From assembly GCA_016795505.1 (NCBI GenBank), contig JAEUHH010000007.1, positions 1 to 64,000 of the forward strand: 64,000 nucleotides of DNA, given 5' to 3'. Shown piece after piece: positions 340 through 9,049 of the stretch. Position 1 is the first letter of the stretch. Every line of letters starts with the position of its first letter. The stretch is from Verrucomicrobiales bacterium. Its GTDB lineage: Bacteria; Verrucomicrobiota; Verrucomicrobiia; Verrucomicrobiales; DEV007. Under the pieces are notes generated by a model, which ran no database searches, was not told where the DNA came from, and was given only the letters and a program-made list of their open reading frames with translations. A program made the translations under genes and the position numbers.

Positions 340-927
340 AGGCAGGCCGCGGGAGCGCGTTTGGGTATCCGACCGGCCCATGCCCGGCGTCGGCCGATTC
401 GGTCAGGCGGCCCTGTGGCCCATCCCACTCCGGCAGCCCGGCGGCGCCGCTTTCGCCAACCCACCGGGACCGCGGGCGTCCCGCCCGCCCCACGGGAAAC
501 GCCGCCGCACCCCGGCCACCCCATCGCCCCGACCGACTCTCTGCCAGCGACTTGCGCGCCACACCCGCCACCCACCGGCCCCGCCGCACCCGTCGGGCCG
601 GCGCACCCGGTCCGGTCAGCCACCCGCGCCGGTGTCCCAACCCGGCCGGCTCGGGCCGGAGACGGGAAAATCAGAAAAAAAACGCTGCCTGAGAAAAAAG
701 CTTGGCAGCGACGCCCTTTTTTGAAAAAACGGGCGCAGCCATGGCCGGCACCTCTCCATTTCTCCTTTTCGGCCACGCTGGAAGCCCTCCAGAGGCGGCC
801 CCCTGTACCGCGACCGGCCGCCATTCCGCCTCCCCGCCGCCGCCGCCGTCACCGCCGGTTGCCACGCTGCTCTCCGGGCCGTTCCCGGCCCCCCGTCGCC
901 GTCGGCGGGAGGCTTTGTTTTTGTCTC
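340..927. other. GC-rich intergenic stretch without a credible gene
   Basis: Several overlapping open frames exist on both strands, but all are Pro/Arg/Ala-rich, share no family motif and look like products of GC-rich composition. The only structure seen is the hairpin pair near 683-735, listed separately. No RNA gene was recognised. Confidence 0.5.
683..735. terminator. Tandem hairpins with A/T runs (terminator-like)
   Basis: A 7-bp stem (CGCTGCC 683-689 with GGCAGCG 704-710) is followed by a second stem. CGCCC plus TTTTTT (712-722) pairs with AAAAAA plus GGGCG (724-735), with one bulged C. The second hairpin resembles a bidirectional Rho-independent terminator. Which transcript it would end is unclear because no gene is adjacent. 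Confidence 0.4.
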
Positions 928-1166
928 TAGGTACACGTACCCAGCTTCTAGGTACGTGTACCCAGGCTTTAGGTACACGTACCCAGCTTCTGGGTACGTG
1001 TCACCAGCCTTTAGGTACACGTACCCAGCCCCTGGGTACACGTCACCAGGCATTAGGTACACGTACCCAGAGGCTGGGTACACGTCACCAGCCTTTAGGT
1101 ACGTGTACCCAGCGGCTGGGTACGTGTCACCAGACGCCAGGTACACGTACCCAGCCGCCAGGTACA
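926..1166. repeat. 21-bp tandem array of near-palindromic units
   Basis: Eleven full units and one partial unit begin every 21 bp from 930 (GG at 930, 951 and so on to 1161). The core is GGTAC-AC-GTACC or its reverse complement GGTAC-GT-GTACC, followed by CAG. About every second unit from the fourth on has GTCACC in place of GTACC. The units therefore alternate in orientation and are strongly dyadic. The period equals two turns of B-DNA and also seven codons, so open frames on both strands read Tyr/Gly/Pro heptads. No spacers, so this is not CRISPR. Confidence 0.9.
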
Positions 1167-1231: not shown

Positions 1232-2116
1232 ATGAAGACCCTCCACTGGGACATGATCGATCCGGCCACCGGGAGACCCTACACGTTCGATAATCCGAAC
1301 CTCAGGTGGGGATCTCCGAGCGTCGTGCTTGAACCGGGGGACCCGGGCTATGTGCCGGTCGCCCCCGTTTCCGAGAAACCGAAACCAAAAAAAGAAACCA
1401 TGAAACAGCGATACTACCCGCCGAGAGCTGCCGCCCAGGTGCAGTGGCTCACCAACTTCTGGCTCAAACTCCTCGTCCACGGCCCTGCCGTCGACTTGAC
1501 GCCGGACGTCATCAACAAACGCGTCGCCGACGCCCGATGGCTCGCCTACGCGATCGGCGCCTGGATCGGGACCATCCGCACGTTCGGCAAGAGCGCCACG
1601 GCCGCCTTGGAGGACGTGCGCTTTGGCGACGACTCAGGCGAGCCGGGACTTCCCGTCCTGACCCTGCCCGCGCTGCCGCCCTCCGAGGGTACCGTGCCCG
1701 CCGTGGTCCCGCAGCCGCCGGGCGCGCTGAACCGCATCTTCGCGGTGGTGCAGCAGATCAAGGAGGCGACCGGCTACACCGACGCCATCGGCGCCGATCT
1801 CGGCCTGATCGGACCGGAGGAGTCGCCGCCGGATTTGACGCTGATCCAGCCCGACCTGGGCATCTCGATCTCCGGCAACAAGGTCCTGATCGATTGGGGC
1901 TGGGAGGGCTACGAGCGCTTCGTGGACCAGTGCGAGATCCAGGTGGATCGCGGTGCCGGCTGGACCCTGCTCACCATCGACACTACCCCCGGCTGCATCG
2001 ACAGCCATCCCCACCCCGCCACCCCGACCAAGTGGAGCTACCGCGCCATCTACCGCGTCGACGACGAACCCATCGGCCAGTGGAGCCCGGTGCGCAGCGT
2101 GTTGTTGGGGCAGTGA
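1232..2116 (+). CDS. Hypothetical protein with C-terminal fibronectin-like region
   Basis: This 294-residue protein has no recognised function. The start chosen is the ATG at 1232 (MKTLHWDMIDPATGRPYT); a GTG at 956 would place the 21-bp array inside the protein and is less likely. The N-terminus is rich in Pro, Lys and aromatics, with no signal peptide. A middle segment (about 65-190) has a helical stretch with WLAYAIGAWIGTIRTFG. The last 80 residues (ISISGNKVLIDWGW to the end) look like a beta-sandwich or FN3-like domain with Trp/Tyr spacing. From memory, similar lineage-restricted proteins occur in Verrucomicrobiota, but this is unverified. A hairpin follows at 2175. Confidence 0.7.
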   Translation: MKTLHWDMIDPATGRPYTFDNPNLRWGSPSVVLEPGDPGYVPVAPVSEKPKPKKETMKQRYYPPRAAAQVQWLTNFWLKLLVHGPAVDLTPDVINKRVADARWLAYAIGAWIGTIRTFGKSATAALEDVRFGDDSGEPGLPVLTLPALPPSEGTVPAVVPQPPGALNRIFAVVQQIKEATGYTDAIGADLGLIGPEESPPDLTLIQPDLGISISGNKVLIDWGWEGYERFVDQCEIQVDRGAGWTLLTIDTTPGCIDSHPHPATPTKWSYRAIYRVDDEPIGQWSPVRSVLLGQ

Positions 2117-2174
2117 GGGGGAGGACAACCTGAAATCGGTCGCCGAGACCCTGAAACCCGGTATTCTGAACTCG

Positions 2175-2220
2175 ACCGCCGCAGCGCGCCGTTTGGTGGC
2201 GTTGCGGCGGTTGAATTTTT
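2175..2220 (+). terminator. Probable Rho-independent terminator after the 1232-2116 gene
   Basis: A 9-bp perfect stem (ACCGCCGCA 2175-2183 with TGCGGCGGT 2203-2211) has a small inner CGCC/GGCG stem and is followed by TGAATTTTT. It lies about 60 bp after the stop codon and marks the switch from GC-rich DNA to the AT-rich island. Confidence 0.5.
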
Positions 2221-2274
2221 CTGCTTTCCGAAGCCAACTTTTGACCTTAAGAACCTTCAGTCTAATAGCCTCTC

Positions 2275-3282
2275 ATGAATTCACCTAATATTTCATTTCA
2301 AGACGCTGTATCCAACCCAGCATTAGCAGACGAGCTTTTTTCTAGGCAAATATTTGCATCTTTAATAGCCAGCGGTCGTTACGTCGAAGGATTCGACTCA
2401 GGAATCGCTTTTTTACAAAAAATGAAAGAATCGAATGAGGAATCTTTCGATCTAATACACAAAGGAGCGGCTTATTTCTGGCTGGGAATTGCTGCAATTT
2501 TCTCAAGAGATTTCGAAGCGGCAACCTTTTTTATCGATGCGGCCGCCGAGGAGGACATCAGACGCCAGAGCCCAATAGATCACGCATCAACACCAGCGAT
2601 CGGATTTCTACTTATTGCCCCGGACAGTCCACCAAATATTGCCTCGCCGGTCGTCGCTCGAATTCGGGTCCTTATAGAAGATAAGATCTCAGTTTACAAA
2701 TCCTTTGAAGACTCGAAACAATCGTTTCGGATTAATATGTTTGAAGATCTGTTGAAAAAATTAGTAGCCGACAAAGAAATCAGAGCAACCCAAGCAAACC
2801 CTGATAAGAAGCTGAAATCAACGGGCTCCCAAACTCTTGCATCATCGCTTTTAACATATTTTTTAGAGCAAAGCGAAAGAGCAAAGTTGATTTCATTCGG
2901 AATTTCAAACGGAACCTTTGAGCCATTTCATCTCAACCTGCTGAAAGGATGCATTTTATTTGAAAGCATAATGCGATTTTACCACCCAGAAGTCGCAGAC
3001 AAAAACCCCAAGTGCACCTTGGGGAGCTTTAAAGATTTCCTTCCAGGAGGTGATGCAAAATTTAACTGCACCGATTTCGAAGAAATTACATCTCTCGCAG
3101 ATCAATTAGACGAGAACCGGAATCCAAACATTAGTCTAGCGTACAGAATTACCGGGAAACTTCGGAACAAAATTGCGCACTCATTTTATTTTGACACACA
3201 AATTAATCACAAATTGTTTCAGAGACTATCCAACGCAATTACATCATCAATAATTGACAAGATAGCTAAAGGACACATCTGA
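2275..3282 (+). CDS. HEPN-motif hypothetical protein (first gene of AT-rich pair)
   Basis: A 335-residue soluble, mostly helical protein of unknown function. Near residues 299-304 it carries RNKIAH, the RNxxxH form of the HEPN nuclease motif (R-x4-6-H), inside a helix context (YRITGKLRNKIAHSF). The preceding helix (LLKGCILFESIMRFY) would suit a HEPN four-helix bundle. The N-terminal half shows helical repeats similar to TPR-like packing. Codon use is visibly AT-rich compared with the surrounding GC-rich genes, which suggests horizontal acquisition. A second gene starts 18 bp downstream on the same strand, so both are probably co-transcribed. HEPN proteins are common RNases in defence and toxin-antitoxin systems; the assignment here rests on one motif. 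Confidence 0.75.
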   Translation: MNSPNISFQDAVSNPALADELFSRQIFASLIASGRYVEGFDSGIAFLQKMKESNEESFDLIHKGAAYFWLGIAAIFSRDFEAATFFIDAAAEEDIRRQSPIDHASTPAIGFLLIAPDSPPNIASPVVARIRVLIEDKISVYKSFEDSKQSFRINMFEDLLKKLVADKEIRATQANPDKKLKSTGSQTLASSLLTYFLEQSERAKLISFGISNGTFEPFHLNLLKGCILFESIMRFYHPEVADKNPKCTLGSFKDFLPGGDAKFNCTDFEEITSLADQLDENRNPNISLAYRITGKLRNKIAHSFYFDTQINHKLFQRLSNAITSSIIDKIAKGHI

Positions 3283-3300
3283 AAATAGGCAACATACAGC

Positions 3301-3885
3301 ATGGAAGACAAAAGTGACAACCTTGAATCATTTAATCTGCTAATTTCGGATGTAAAGGTGCTCTTTCAGTTTGTGCACCCTTGCAACTCCAACCTCCACA
3401 CCTATTCGCATCGCTGTTACGAATTACTTTTGCGGAGCTGCACCGAATTCGAATCTCTAATTAAACAACTTATGACATCCGAAAAGCCGAACAAAAGACT
3501 CACCATGAGAGATTTCGCCATCTTCGGATCTGATGCCGGATTACACGAGCCAACATTTGTTTTTACAAATTGGAATCCCACCCCCCTTTATCTTGCCCCG
3601 TTTTCCGAATGGAAACAAGACCCCGCGCTCTCACCTTCGTGGTACCAATCATACAATAAAGTGAAGCACAATAGATCTATTAATTTTCCGGAAGCTTCGC
3701 TCAACAATGTGCTTCATGCGATTGCTGCATGCGCAATCGTTTTAACAAAAATGAAGGCAATTTCTCCGAGCCTTCCAGATCACCGCCACTTACCTAACGA
3801 CCAAATCATAATGTATTTTAGAGATTTTCCATTTGCCCTCCAAGGAACCTCGAACGGTTGGTTTTTCGAGAATGCTGTCGATTGA
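3301..3885 (+). CDS. Small hypothetical protein with YNxVKHxR motif (second gene of AT-rich pair)
   Basis: A 194-residue soluble protein with no recognised family. Near residues 117-125 it carries WYQSYNKVKHNR, followed by an amphipathic helix (ASLNNVLHAIAACAIVL). The N-x-x-K-H-x-R arrangement resembles HEPN-type active sites (N/R...H), but the canonical RxxxxH spacing is not strict. A helical N-terminal half (SHRCYELLLRSCTEFESLI) would fit the same fold. Composition is AT-rich like its upstream neighbour. Both genes form an isolated two-gene unit between GC-rich, repeat-bearing flanks. It could be a nuclease partner, an inhibitor or a sensor subunit; no direct evidence decides. Confidence 0.7.
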   Translation: MEDKSDNLESFNLLISDVKVLFQFVHPCNSNLHTYSHRCYELLLRSCTEFESLIKQLMTSEKPNKRLTMRDFAIFGSDAGLHEPTFVFTNWNPTPLYLAPFSEWKQDPALSPSWYQSYNKVKHNRSINFPEASLNNVLHAIAACAIVLTKMKAISPSLPDHRHLPNDQIIMYFRDFPFALQGTSNGWFFENAVD

Positions 3886-4401
3886 CTCTTTTAGCCAACT
3901 CACCCGGATAGTGCTAGGCGTTTGCTGAATTAGGCTTTGGTTTCAAATTTAAATCACCCCGTCGCGTTCCGTCACGGCGTGAGTTACTGCAGGAGGGCTC
4001 CATACGTCTCCAACTAAATCCAGGACACTCTTCCTGACGATCGATCAGAAAATCTTATTACCCCCGAGAGCCGGAGGCTCACCGGAAATTAGCCGGCGGC
4101 GTCAGCCGCCGGTTCGCACCATTTTTATCGACCGCCCCGGAGGGGCGGCGGAGCGCCAGCCATTCGCCGGCTTGATTTCCTCATCCATCCCGGCAGGCGC
4201 CGATCGAGACAAACCACCCGGACCGCCGCGGTTCCAGCGCCCCTGCCGGGGCGCTCTTCCGTGTGAGATTCGTATCCGGTGGCTGTCGCCACCGGCTCAT
4301 TTCCGTCGTCCCTCCGGGACGCGACTCACCCGCTCCCGCCAACGGTCCGGTCCAACGCGCCGCCTCTCCTCACACCCCGCTCTCGCCTCTCTCCTTCTCC
4401 C
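3886..4401. other. Intergenic region with three GC hairpins
   Basis: No gene was recognised. It holds three short strong hairpins: 4093-4100/4105-4112 (CCGGCGGC), 4132-4138/4142-4148 (CCGCCCC) and 4236-4243/4248-4255 (AGCGCCCC). These GC-rich palindromes resemble REP-type intergenic repeats. The first 150 bp remain AT-rich and may be the right edge of the acquired two-gene island. Confidence 0.5.
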
Positions 4402-4471: not shown

Positions 4472-7400
4472 TCACCCCGCCAGAGCCACGGGCGGCAGGG
4501 GCGCGGTGTCGCGGGCGGGGGTCTCGGCGCCGCCGTCGAAGTGGAGGTGGGGGAGATTCCGCGAGATGACGCCGAACAGCTCTTCGCGGCGGAAGGGTTT
4601 GGCGAGGAAGTCAGAGCACCCGGCCTCGATGGCGGCGCTGCGGTTCTGGTCGAGGGCGAAGGCGGTGAGGGCGACGATGACGGGCAGCCACTCGGCGCCG
4701 GTCTCCTCGGCCTCGGTCATGATGGCGCGGGTAGCCTCGCGGCCGGTCATGTGGGGCATCTGCTCGTCCATGAGGATGAGGTGGGGCTGCCATTTGCGCC
4801 ACATCTCGACGGCGGCGGCGCCATCCTCGGCCTCGCGGAGCACGAAGCCGGCGGGCTCGAGGTGCTTGCGCAGGAGGAGGCGATTCGGCATCTGATCCTC
4901 GGCGATGAGGATGCGCACCTCGGGCTGGCCGGGGGCGAGGCGGCGGAGGGCGCCGTTGCTGTTGTGACCACTGCCACTGCCGGAGGCGGGAGATTTCGCC
5001 GCGGCGGGGCGGTGTCGGACCAGGGCGGGCGAGCCGCCGGCGAGGGCGCCGGCTCCGGCGGTGGGCTCGGGCTCGATCTCGATGTCGGCGCTGGGCTCGG
5101 CATCGAGGGCGCCGCTGGCGGAGATCTCCTCGCAGGCGATGTGGAAGCGGAAGGTAGTGCCGGCGCCGACGGTGCTGTCGACGGTGATGTGGCCGCCGAG
5201 CAGCTCGACGAAGGCTTTGGCGATGGTGAGGCCGAGGCCGGTGCTGTCGGCGGCGCCTTTGCCGGACTCGGTCTGGGTGTACTGGTCGAAGAGGGTGCCG
5301 ATCTCGTCGGGGGCGATGCCTTTGCCGGTGTCGCGGACTTCGAAGTAGAGGCGGATGGGCCGGCGGCGCAGGCCCTGGTCCTGGGTGGTCTCGCCGGTGA
5401 CTTCGGCCCAGGCAGCGAGGGTGACGCTGCCGGTATCGGTGAATTTCAGGGCATTCCCGAGGAGGTTGATGAGGATCTGGCGCAGTTTGCTTTTGTCGGT
5501 CTCGACGAGGCGGGGCAGGGCGGTGAGCAGCTCCAGGGGGAAGCCGAGGCCCTGGGAACGGGCGCGGAGGCTGAGCATCTTGTGGAGGGAGCGGAGCATG
5601 CGCTCGATCTCGAAGCGGCCGGGGTGGATCTCGATCTTGCCGGCTTCGATCTTGGCGAGGTCGAGGACGCCGTTGATGACTTCGTGGAGGTGCTCGCCGC
5701 TGTTGTTGATGATGGCCATGACCTCGCGCTGGCGGTCGTTGAGCTCGGAGTCCTCGTTCATGACCTCGGAGAAGCCGAGGATGGCATTGAGCGGGGTGCG
5801 GAGCTCGTGGGTCATCTTGGCGAGGAAGTCGCTCTTGGCGCGGTTGGCGGACTCGGCGGCTTCGCGGGCGACCTGGAGGGCCTCGCGGTGGATGCGGTCC
5901 TGCCGGGCGACGCGCCACTGGGCGATGGCGATGCCGAGTTGGTTGGAGAGGGACTCGAGGGTCTGGACGTCGACGGAGGCGAGGCTCTCGGCGCCGGGGG
6001 GACGCTGGAGGATGATGGCGCCATTGGGCCGGTCGAGGAAGGCGGTGCGGCGCAGGATGAATCCGCCAGCGGGCGACCAGTGCTCGGCGATGGTGTGCAG
6101 GGCGCCGCTGCGGGAGGCGGCGGAGCCGCGGGGGATGATGGCGATCTCGGACTGGGCGACGACTTCGCGGATGGCGGCATCGAGGGCGTCGTCGACGGCG
6201 ACGAGGTCGGGGGTGCCGTCGGCGAGGGGCACGGCGCGGTAGTCGGCGAGGAGGTGCAGGGTGCCGTCGGCGCCTTCGCCGGTGAAGGCGTCGGAGGGAC
6301 AGGCGACGATGGAGCAGCGGGTGGCGTCGAACTGCTGGGCGACGATCTTCAAGGCGCTGTGGAAGAGGTCGCGGGGGTCGCGGTCCTGCCCCAACTCGCG
6401 GCCGGCCTGGTCGAGCAACAGGGCGTGCTGGAGCTGGCGGGCGAGCTCGGCTTCGGCGCGGTCGCGCTGCTGCTCGGCGCGCTCGATGAGGCGGCGGTGG
6501 TAGCGAGTCCGGGACAGGCCGATGAGGCTGGCGATGCCCCAGACGGTGAGGCCGAAGGCGACGACATAGAGGAGGTAGGCCCACCAGGTGCGGTACCACG
6601 GGGGGCGGACGATGACTTCGAGGTGGCTGCTGACATCATTCCACTGGATGCCATCGGGCGAGCTCTGGGCTTCGAACTGGTATTTGCCGGGCTGGAGGGC
6701 GGTGTAGATGGCCTGGCGGTCGGAGCCGGCGACATTCCACATCAGATCCTGGCCGGCGAGACGGTAGCGGAAGTGCTCGGGGCCGGTGTCGGTGAGGCCG
6801 CCGGAGGCGAGTTTGATGGCAAGGCGATTGGCCTGCTCGAAGGCGAGGACGAGGTGACTGGTCTCGGCGAGGGGTTTCTCGATCGGTCCTCCGGGGCGGG
6901 GCTCGACGGTCTCGCCGGACAGCTCGAGGGCGGCGAGGACGGGCGTGGGGGTGGTCCGCTCGGGCGGGAGGTTGGACGGGTCGATGATGTTGAATCCATC
7001 GGCCCCGCCGATGACGAGGGCGCCATTCTGCAGGCGGGCGGCGGCTCCGGGGTGGAAGACGCCGTGCTGGAGCCCGTCCATGTGGCCGAAGCGGCGCATG
7101 CGCCCGGTGGCGGGATCGAGTCGGCCGAGTCCGCTGCCGGTGGCGACCCACAGGATGCCGGCGGCGTCCTCGGCGAGGGAGGCGACGCGATCATCGGGCA
7201 GGCCGTGGCTGGAGCGGGTGTAGCGGGTGGTCTCTCCGGACACGGGATCGATGCGGTAAACGCCGTCGCCGAGGGTGCCGACCCAGAGCTGCCCGCTGGC
7301 ATCGATGCGGAGGCTGGAGACGGGGGACTCGCCGAGGTCGAGGGATTTCAGGGCTTCGATGGAGCGGTAGCTGGACAATTTCCCGAGATCGCCATCGAGC

Positions 7401-9049
7401 ACATAGAGGCCCTCCAGGCTGCCCACCCAGGTCTGGCCGCGGGGATCGCCCACCATGGCGGTGATGTGCCGGCAGTCGAGGATGGCCTCTTTCGCACCGT
7501 CTTCACTGACCCCGCGGTCGGTCAGGGCGGCGAGGAAGCTGCGGCCGGAGCCCGGGTCCATGAGGCGGGCGATGCCACCGCCCATGGTGCCGACCCAGAG
7601 GCGGCCTTTGGCATCCTCATGAAGCGCGGTGACGGAATCGTGGGGCAGCGAGGCGGCATCGTCCGAGCCGCGGGTGTACTGCTGGAGCGTGCGGTCGGCG
7701 CCGACGCGGAACAGTCCATCGCCGCGGGTGCCGACCCAGAGGCGGCCGGTGGTGTCGCGCAGCAGGGCCTGGACGAAGGGCTCGCCGGGCAATCCATTGA
7801 CCCGATCGGGAAAATCCACCGGGCGCGGCATCCAGCCCTGCTCGGCATGCCAGCGCAGCAATCCGGACTCGGACGCGACCCAGACGGAGCCGTCGGCTTC
7901 CTCGGAAAAGGCCCAGATGGCTCCCTCGCCGGGCTTGACGCCGTTCGCGTCGCTGTCCTCGGCCCGGATGCGGCTGAAACCGAAGGCGCCGACATCGACG
8001 CGGCTGACCAGGCCGGTGCTGACCCCGACCCACATGCCGCGGTCGCGGTCCTCGCACAGGGCAGTGACGAGATGGCCGGGCAGGCTGCCGGAATCGATGG
8101 GATCGTGCCGGTAGATGGCGACATTGCCGCTGGCGAGTTCGATGCGGACGAGGCCTTTCGGGATGGCGACCCAGAGGTGGCCCTTGCTGTCCTGCCTGAC
8201 CGTGCCGAGCATGCGCGACGGGAGCACCACGCCCGGATGTCCGGTGCCGGTGAGGATCGTCATGGTGGCCGGATCGTAGCGGAACAGCCCGGAGCCCTCG
8301 GTGGCGATCCACATGGCCGCGCCGGTGCCGGGGGCGATGGCGGAAATGGGCGTGGTGGACTGCCAGACGCGGTAGAGCTCGGTCTCGCCGCGGCGCTGCA
8401 CCACCAGGGCACCATCGTAGAGCCCGATCCAGAGATCGCCTTCGGCGCTCAGAGCCAGCGCGGACACCCGTGTATCGCCAATGGCGGGGCGAAAGGTGAC
8501 GATGCGGTTTTCCGCCAGATCGAGCTTGGCGAGGCCCTGATTGGTCCCGATCCACAGGTCGCCCTTCAGGTCGGTCTGGAGCGCGAGGATCTCATCGCCC
8601 GGCAGGTCGTGGATCGAGGCCCGCACCTTCGACACGCCGCTGAGGGGGTCGACCTGATGCAGCTCGCCCGATGCGGTGCCGACCCAGACCTCGCCCTTCA
8701 GCCCGGCCGTCATGGCGGTCACGGCTTTCCGACCAAAGGCGGCCTGTCCGTCCTGCCCCGCCAGTTGCACCCGATACCCCCGGTGGTCGAACCGATACAG
8801 CCCCGAGGCACCAGCCAGCCAGAGCCCGCCCCGGCTGTCGAGCATGATCGACCGCACCTCGACCGGCGGCAGCTCGTCGGCGCCGATGAGCCGCTGAAAG
8901 CGCACATTTTTCCAGTCGCGGTATTCCTGGGCCTTGCCGGCATTCAGCGCAGCCGGTTCGACGGCATGGTCCTCCCCCGGCCACCCCAGGCAGCCCAGTG
9001 CCACGGCCCAACCGATCAGCCGGCTCCCCATTTTGCTGAAATTCACCAC
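4472..9049 (-). CDS. Hybrid two-component system: reg_prop propeller, Y_Y_Y, GAF, histidine kinase, receiver
   Basis: A 1525-residue one-protein signalling system of the HTCS type. A signal or anchor segment is followed by many reg_prop beta-propeller repeats (about 60-700; recurring LWVGT/GLYRFD patterns) and a Y_Y_Y-like domain (about 740-815). A single membrane helix (about 825-845) and a GAF-like domain (about 880-1050) follow. The HisKA domain carries MTHELRTPLN (phospho-His about 1081). The HATPase shows LINLLGNALKF, DTGKGI and GLGLTIAK, and the C-terminal receiver has LILMDEQMP (phospho-Asp about 1427). There is no DNA-binding domain after the receiver, so output must pass to a partner or by phosphotransfer. 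The propeller would sense a periplasmic ligand. A second in-frame Met lies at residue 7. It is divergent from the FMN protein at 9216. Confidence 0.93.
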   Translation of the reverse strand: MVNFSKMGSRLIGWAVALGCLGWPGEDHAVEPAALNAGKAQEYRDWKNVRFQRLIGADELPPVEVRSIMLDSRGGLWLAGASGLYRFDHRGYRVQLAGQDGQAAFGRKAVTAMTAGLKGEVWVGTASGELHQVDPLSGVSKVRASIHDLPGDEILALQTDLKGDLWIGTNQGLAKLDLAENRIVTFRPAIGDTRVSALALSAEGDLWIGLYDGALVVQRRGETELYRVWQSTTPISAIAPGTGAAMWIATEGSGLFRYDPATMTILTGTGHPGVVLPSRMLGTVRQDSKGHLWVAIPKGLVRIELASGNVAIYRHDPIDSGSLPGHLVTALCEDRDRGMWVGVSTGLVSRVDVGAFGFSRIRAEDSDANGVKPGEGAIWAFSEEADGSVWVASESGLLRWHAEQGWMPRPVDFPDRVNGLPGEPFVQALLRDTTGRLWVGTRGDGLFRVGADRTLQQYTRGSDDAASLPHDSVTALHEDAKGRLWVGTMGGGIARLMDPGSGRSFLAALTDRGVSEDGAKEAILDCRHITAMVGDPRGQTWVGSLEGLYVLDGDLGKLSSYRSIEALKSLDLGESPVSSLRIDASGQLWVGTLGDGVYRIDPVSGETTRYTRSSHGLPDDRVASLAEDAAGILWVATGSGLGRLDPATGRMRRFGHMDGLQHGVFHPGAAARLQNGALVIGGADGFNIIDPSNLPPERTTPTPVLAALELSGETVEPRPGGPIEKPLAETSHLVLAFEQANRLAIKLASGGLTDTGPEHFRYRLAGQDLMWNVAGSDRQAIYTALQPGKYQFEAQSSPDGIQWNDVSSHLEVIVRPPWYRTWWAYLLYVVAFGLTVWGIASLIGLSRTRYHRRLIERAEQQRDRAEAELARQLQHALLLDQAGRELGQDRDPRDLFHSALKIVAQQFDATRCSIVACPSDAFTGEGADGTLHLLADYRAVPLADGTPDLVAVDDALDAAIREVVAQSEIAIIPRGSAASRSGALHTIAEHWSPAGGFILRRTAFLDRPNGAIILQRPPGAESLASVDVQTLESLSNQLGIAIAQWRVARQDRIHREALQVAREAAESANRAKSDFLAKMTHELRTPLNAILGFSEVMNEDSELNDRQREVMAIINNSGEHLHEVINGVLDLAKIEAGKIEIHPGRFEIERMLRSLHKMLSLRARSQGLGFPLELLTALPRLVETDKSKLRQILINLLGNALKFTDTGSVTLAAWAEVTGETTQDQGLRRRPIRLYFEVRDTGKGIAPDEIGTLFDQYTQTESGKGAADSTGLGLTIAKAFVELLGGHITVDSTVGAGTTFRFHIACEEISASGALDAEPSADIEIEPEPTAGAGALAGGSPALVRHRPAAAKSPASGSGSGHNSNGALRRLAPGQPEVRILIAEDQMPNRLLLRKHLEPAGFVLREAEDGAAAVEMWRKWQPHLILMDEQMPHMTGREATRAIMTEAEETGAEWLPVIVALTAFALDQNRSAAIEAGCSDFLAKPFRREELFGVISRNLPHLHFDGGAETPARDTAPLPPVALAG

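What the first reader, a model, noticed from the sequence alone, without database searches (positions are those of the whole stretch)
2275..3885. AT-rich two-gene island whose products both carry HEPN-like motifs
Two same-strand genes 18 bp apart lie in clearly AT-rich DNA between GC-rich, hairpin-bearing flanks, so horizontal acquisition is likely. The first protein has RNKIAH (RNxxxH HEPN motif) near its C-terminus. The second has YNKVKHNR followed by a helix. HEPN domains are RNases common in defence and toxin-antitoxin systems. Neither protein belongs to a family I recognise, so this may be an undescribed two-component HEPN system.
Basis: partly seen in the sequence, partly recalled or inferred. 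Interest (0 to 1): 0.78.

Follow-up and report, generated by a model that had tools for sequence, protein, structure and literature searches.

The report
Mobile pair of HEPN-like defence genes
A small, probably horizontally acquired, two-gene cassette in a Verrucomicrobiota chromosome carries one orphan gene with a classic RNA-cutting (HEPN) motif and one member of a widespread, uncharacterised HEPN-fold family that often sits beside toxin and anti-phage genes, so it may be a phage-defence or toxin module, although the exact pair is seen only here.

Summary
Two same-strand ORFs (2275-3282 and 3301-3885, 18 bp apart; 41% and 43% GC against about 64%) lie in an AT-rich island.

ORF2 is not an orphan. 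It belongs to a family spread over many phyla, plasmids and phages, matched only by phrog_19461 and absent from Pfam, NCBIfam, PADLOC and PDB sequences. Its AlphaFold model (pLDDT 85) matches mainly HEPN toxins. It lacks the catalytic R of RNxxxH: the motif is YNxxKH[DN]R, plus an Ex3K motif. The window copy sits in a supported 'short-form' clade. Short forms repeatedly follow a toxin or effector gene: RelA/SpoT, VapBC, BrnTA, SIR2, and DUF4145-HEPN in Thermus (4-nt overlap) and Paenibacillus.

ORF1 has canonical LRNKIAH and Ex3R, but its only profile hit is sub-threshold (pEK499_p136 HEPN, E 0.05), its fold model failed, and no relative turned up in about 1,300 genome searches, three congeners included.

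So 'both HEPN' is supported for ORF2 and plausible for ORF1. 'A two-component HEPN system' is not a conserved pair, but HEPN genes next to this family recur with unrelated partners. Best reading: a mobile RNA-targeting abortive-infection or toxin module. The widespread partner family is the most interesting part.

The parts
2275..3282 (+). ORF1, 335 aa, predicted all-helical (low confidence); C-terminal half carries HEPN hallmark motifs; orphan
   Evidence: model failed, pLDDT 38; sub-threshold pEK499_p136 HEPN, E 0.049
3163..3180 (+). RNKIAH (ORF1 R297-H302), canonical HEPN Rx4H motif within LRNKIAH
2962..2976 (+). ESIMR (ORF1 E230-R234), HEPN-type Ex3[KR] motif, 72 residues before H302
   Evidence: motif definition from PMC3710099
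3283..3300 (+). 18-bp intergenic gap, consistent with an operon
3301..3885 (+). ORF2, 194 aa, short form of the KHxR HEPN-like family (phrog_19461)
3652..3675 (+). YNKVKHNR (ORF2 118-125), family motif at the place of Rx4H; KHxR kept in the relatives examined except Lactococcus (KHDK), Y/N in most
3451..3465 (+). ESLIK (ORF2 E51-K55), HEPN-type Ex3[KR] motif, 72 residues before H123
2218..4060 (.). AT-rich island between GC-rich host flanks
2169..2217 (.). 19-nt inverted repeat (84% complementary, 11-nt loop) at the left edge, possibly the terminator of the upstream gene

Best explanation
A horizontally acquired RNA-targeting abortive-infection or toxin-type cassette. ORF1 is a HEPN ribonuclease: its C-terminal HEPN domain cuts RNA with R297/N298/H302 and E230, and its N-terminal helical half is a sensor or oligomerisation part. 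ORF2 is a HEPN-fold partner that lacks the canonical arginine. It pairs with ORF1, either as a dimer partner that holds the RNase inactive or as the element that senses infection and releases it, in the way that other members of its short-form clade follow different toxins. Shown here: coordinates, composition, motifs, ORF2 family membership, ORF2 fold similarity to HEPN toxins, and recurring toxin neighbours. Inferred: the HEPN fold of ORF1, RNase activity, joint action and the phage trigger.
For: ORF2 model pLDDT 85, pTM 0.82. The five best Foldseek PDB matches and most of the top 29 are HEPN or HEPN-MNT proteins (best prob 0.97, target TM 0.62). VIA Z 6.4-8.3 for Csm6, HI0074, HEPN-MNT toxins and AF0298. 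Ex3[KR] and the motif H are 72 residues apart in both proteins. ORF1 LRNKIAH in 0.015% of shuffles; the only Pfam match of its C-terminal fragment is a HEPN family at E 0.049. Short-form clade support 100/99. Genes just upstream of short forms: RelA/SpoT PDC-S33 E 6.6e-117, 33 bp; VapC E 5e-24, 4-nt overlap; BrnTA, 8-nt overlap; SIR2_2 E 9e-8; DUF4145 in Thermus, 4-nt overlap, and Paenibacillus. Other family members lie between hsdS and hsdR, after AbiEii and in the cos-proximal defence hotspot of a P2-like phage.
Against: ORF1 is found only here, so co-evolution of the pair cannot be tested. ORF1's fold is untested (model pLDDT 38). ORF2 relatives are often solitary. Genes more than 4.5 kb away in the same loci also include defence and HEPN families, so HEPN adjacency is not enriched over the local island background. 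Foldseek E-values are weak (0.2 at best), and Z under 8 can arise for helical bundles by chance. ORF2 lacks the catalytic R. The whole-length ORF1/ORF2 comparison is not significant (14 of 156 identities; the A3 profile finds nothing in ORF1).
Confidence: 0.42

Rival explanations
1. Two independent cargo genes in one island: ORF2 acts alone, as its solitary relatives must, as an RNA-binding or RNA-cleaving defence protein using K122/H123/R125; ORF1 is an unrelated orphan gene next to it.
For: Most family members are single ~310-345 aa genes without a fixed partner; solitary copies sit in phage and prophage cargo positions; HEPN families with H but no R are known (Parep1/8, c2405; PMC3710099).
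Against: 18-bp spacing, shared composition, HEPN-type motifs in both proteins, and repeated toxin-ORF2 operons among short forms.
Confidence: 0.35
2. Plain toxin-antitoxin pair: ORF1 is a HEPN toxin and ORF2 its antitoxin.
For: Gene order, spacing and similar pairings with RelA/SpoT-like and DUF4145 genes.
Against: In the BrnTA and VapBC loci a cognate antitoxin is already present, and the RelA/SpoT relatives checked on plasmids have no ORF2-like neighbour among the tblastn hits, so ORF2 is not a dedicated antitoxin there.
Confidence: 0.15
3. Housekeeping or regulatory HEPN-fold proteins (non-catalytic RNA binding, MtlR-like) with no defence role.
For: Catalytic R absent from ORF2; some neighbours are ordinary metabolic genes.
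Against: Patchy distribution (7 of 387 genomes of the phylum), plasmid and phage carriage, AT-rich island, defence neighbours.
Confidence: 0.08

Closest known systems
phrog_19461 (PHROGs, function unknown)
   Same: Sequence homology over ORF2 residues 10-148 (E 3.7e-18)
   Different: The PHROG profile is 331 positions, with an N-terminal region ORF2 lacks; no function known
HepT/MntA and other HEPN-MNT toxins (PDB 8yuf, 8xdj, 7ae8, 6m6u)
   Same: Best fold matches of the ORF2 model; motif H near the end of the helix before the last one
   Different: HepT has RX4HXY and an adenylylating MNT antitoxin (PMC7641770); ORF2 has YNxxKHNR and no MNT next to it
HEPN families with H but no R: Parep1/8, c2405 (PMC3710099)
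   Same: Histidine kept and arginine of Rx4-6H lost; other conserved basic residues (Parep1/8)
   Different: No sequence link was tested; c2405 is fused to AbiTii
Bxe_C0808 HEPN (operon with AbiU2; PMC3710099)
   Same: An AbiU2-like gene with LRNRRIAH lies 48 bp upstream of an ORF2 relative in Reyranella
   Different: Bxe_C0808 is listed as keeping Rx4-6H, the ORF2 family does not; sequences not compared
pEK499_p136 HEPN (PF18736) and DUF4145 (PF13643)
   Same: ORF1 C-terminus gives one sub-threshold hit to pEK499_p136 covering the LRNKIAH region
   Different: Score 13.8 bits against a cut-off of 26.6; no significant similarity to the Thermus DUF4145 partner

Membership tests
HEPN superfamily (ORF2) | HEPN four-helix fold | tested here: met
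   Model pLDDT 85; top PDB matches are HEPN proteins, TM 0.6 to target, VIA Z 6.4-8.3. Scores are moderate, so met by consistency of the list rather than by one strong hit
HEPN superfamily (ORF2) | Rx4-6H active-site motif | tested here: not met
   Y118-N119-K-V-K122-H123-N-R125; no Rx4H in ORF2. PMC3710099 accepts families lacking R, so this lowers the claim of canonical catalysis, not of the fold
HEPN superfamily (ORF2) | Conserved upstream acidic residue in Ex3[KR] | tested here: met
   E51 in 76 of 79, K/R at position 55 in 44 of 79
HEPN superfamily (ORF1) | Rx4-6H motif with polar residue after R | tested here: met
   LRNKIAH 296-302, 0.015% of shuffles
HEPN superfamily (ORF1) | HEPN fold | tested here: inconclusive
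   Single-sequence AlphaFold model failed, pLDDT 38; no homologues for an alignment
HEPN superfamily (ORF1) | Significant profile match to a HEPN family | tested here: inconclusive
   Only PF18736, E 0.049, below cut-off
phrog_19461 / KHxR family (ORF2) | Sequence homology and KHxR motif | tested here: met
Known defence system (PADLOC 2.0.0) | Match to a PADLOC model | tested here: not met
   None for ORF1 or ORF2; isolated weak hits only among 79 relatives
HEPN-MNT toxin-antitoxin | Adjacent MNT nucleotidyltransferase with GSx10DxD | tested here: not met
   ORF1 has no nucleotidyltransferase match; flanking genes are a hypothetical protein and a hybrid histidine kinase
Bxe_C0808 HEPN | Sequence similarity to Bxe_C0808 | not tested
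   Sequence not at hand; only its table entry was read
Conserved two-component HEPN system | ORF1 and ORF2 homologues found together elsewhere | tested here: not met
   ORF1 found only in its own genome and in none of the ORF2-family loci

The most novel reading that the evidence does not exclude
The KHxR HEPN-like family, to which ORF2 belongs, is a widespread, promiscuous accessory component that plugs into many different toxin and defence operons (HEPN, RelA/SpoT, VapC, BrnT, SIR2, AbiEii, type I and type IIG R-M) as a shared trigger, brake or second RNase; the window pair is a HEPN-HEPN heteromeric version.
Probability: 0.2. Interest if true: 0.8.

Novelty: new variant of a known kind. Interest (0 to 1): 0.5.

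Why it matters
If the family works as its neighbourhoods suggest, it would be a common but unnamed part of bacterial immunity, with a HEPN fold whose active site is rebuilt around KHxR instead of Rx4H, and a case of one partner shared by many unrelated toxins. The window locus would give a compact two-gene test of whether a canonical and a degenerate HEPN act together.

Tried and rejected
ORF1 homologues: Pfam, NCBIfam, PHROGs, PADLOC, PDB sequences, phages, plasmids, viral contigs, and 387 genomes of its phylum plus samples of four other phyla and 75 genomes of its family: nothing. LA2681 (TPR-HEPN) family in the phylum: nothing, but its control was also silent, so uninformative; same for PF18736. 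ORF1 model: unusable. ORF1 and ORF2 as paralogues: best local alignment reached by 1.2% of shuffles and not at the motif, no ungapped or profile support. ORF2 as dedicated partner of PDC-S33 RelA/SpoT: four plasmid relatives show no ORF2-like neighbour and are absent from the ORF2 tblastn list. Empty-site test in a congener: the upstream gene has an ortholog (55%), but the window's other neighbours do not follow it there, so no clean empty site. Near-versus-far neighbour control: both sets hold defence genes, so no enrichment claim for HEPN neighbours. Direct repeats flanking the island: none convincing. Promoter and terminator scans: no more sites than in shuffles, so nothing drawn from them.

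Full report
OBSERVATION. Their GC is 41% and 43% against a window mean near 64%. Random DNA of that composition would rarely stay open so long. RNKIAH is real but spans residues 297-302, so the residues to mutate are R297 and H302. As a bare Rx4H it means little (27% of shuffles); as LRNxIAH it is rare (0.015%). YNKVKHNR is at 118-125 of ORF2.

THE GENOME. The window is the first 64 kb of contig C48 of a 6.55-Mb assembly, 97% complete. An Ereboglobus genome (Opitutaceae, Verrucomicrobiota) appears to be the same as a 'same class' relative in the phylum search (L057 and L143 carry the same neighbouring ORF), so the host is in Verrucomicrobiota. The left flanking gene has further matches elsewhere in the genome and the right flank is a hybrid two-component kinase, so the flanks look like host DNA.

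ORF2 IS A FAMILY MEMBER. It hits phrog_19461 (E 3.7e-18) and nothing in Pfam, NCBIfam, PADLOC or PDB sequences. tblastn finds relatives on Klebsiella, Rhizobium, Bacteroides, Delftia, Acinetobacter and other plasmids and in Salmonella phage SEN8. A profile scan finds 105 genome stretches and 36 viral-contig stretches, and 7 of 387 genomes of its own phylum have a match. Caution: the genome scan was seeded with [ASG]YN[KAR][VTI]KH[DN]R, so the invariance of that string in alignment A3 is partly by construction. Relatives found without that seed keep KHxR, with N replaced by T, Q or I (L132, L133, L136, L014); Lactococcus has KHDK. Members are long forms (about 300-345 aa, motif near 230) or short forms (about 190-260 aa).

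FOLD OF ORF2. With 79 aligned sequences AlphaFold gives pLDDT 85, pTM 0.82. The best five PDB matches and most of the top 29 are HEPN proteins; VIA gives Z 6.4-8.3 to Csm6, HI0074, HEPN-MNT toxins and AF0298. The scores are moderate for a helical fold, but the list is consistent. The family also has the HEPN Ex3[KR] motif (E51 in 76 of 79). The catalytic R of Rx4-6H is replaced by Y, as in the Parep1/8 and c2405 families that keep H without R (PMC3710099). Whether K122/R125 replace it is inference.

ORF1. It has the two HEPN hallmarks, LRNKIAH and FESIMR (Ex3R), with E230 and H302 72 residues apart, the same spacing as E51-H123 in ORF2 (noticed after the fact, so weak). The C-terminal fragment gives one Pfam match, below cut-off, to a HEPN family (PF18736, E 0.049). 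The structure model failed. No relative was found in any collection or in about 1,300 genome searches, three congeners included. So HEPN membership of ORF1 is likely but unproven.

NEIGHBOURHOODS. ORF1 itself accompanies no other family member. The window copy falls in a 13-row clade with 100/99 support made of short forms and close kin. In short forms, inside this clade and outside it, the gene just upstream is repeatedly a toxin or effector: a RelA/SpoT protein matching PADLOC PDC-S33 (33 bp, E 6.6e-117), VapBC (4-nt overlap), BrnTA (8-nt overlap), SIR2, a DUF4145 homologue in Paenibacillus (166 bp), annotated DUF4145 in Thermus (4-nt overlap), and a gene with LRNKHFAH in Vibrio (117 bp). 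Long forms lie between hsdS and hsdR (L055, L091, L094), directly after an Eco57I-type enzyme (L044), after AbiEii, after an AbiU2-like gene judged by eye (L030) and between cos and gene Q of a P2-like phage, the hotspot described in PMC9122126. Control: genes more than 4.5 kb away in the same loci also include defence families and two DUF4145. The family is therefore found in defence-rich regions, but HEPN adjacency as such is not shown to be enriched.

INTERPRETATION. Best reading: a mobile RNA-targeting abortive-infection or toxin-type cassette in which ORF1 is the HEPN RNase and ORF2 a HEPN-fold partner (confidence 0.42). Main rival: two independent cargo genes, ORF2 acting alone (0.35). 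A simple toxin-antitoxin pair is less likely because ORF2-type genes join operons that already hold their antitoxin. The literature searches turned up no description or test of this family; absence from that library is not proof.

NOVELTY. The HEPN fold and HEPN defence genes are well known. A widespread HEPN-like family with KHxR in place of Rx4H, without a Pfam or PADLOC entry and with many different toxin neighbours, is a new variant of that kind. Overlap with Bxe_C0808, listed only by name as an AbiU2 neighbour in PMC3710099, could not be excluded by sequence.

Noticed in passing
window 925-1166: Tandem array of a 42-bp unit (5.4 copies, 86% match) rich in GGTACACGTACCCAG palindromes, directly upstream of a hypothetical gene at 1232-2116.
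   Followed up: no
window 1232-2116: Hypothetical protein starting MKTLHWDMIDPATGRPYTFDNPNLRWG with five further matches in the same genome and one 55% ortholog in a congener.
   Followed up: partly
window 4472-9049, minus strand: 1,525-aa hybrid sensor kinase with Reg_prop propeller, HATPase and response-regulator domains.
   Followed up: no
L015:1684-3435: RelA/SpoT-domain gene matching PADLOC candidate PDC-S33 followed after 33 bp by an ORF2-family gene in a Planctomycetota MAG.
   Followed up: partly
L165:3549-4627: Thermus thermophilus plasmid: DUF4145 gene overlapping an ORF2-family gene by 4 nt.
   Followed up: partly
L055:805-1752, L091:4567-5502, L094:6686-7621: ORF2-family genes inserted in type I R-M operons, next to hsdS and upstream of hsdR, in small (0.9-1.4 Mb) genomes.
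   Followed up: partly
L004:3716-4900: The Chryseobacterium plasmid copy of the ORF2 family is split over two frames.
   Followed up: no
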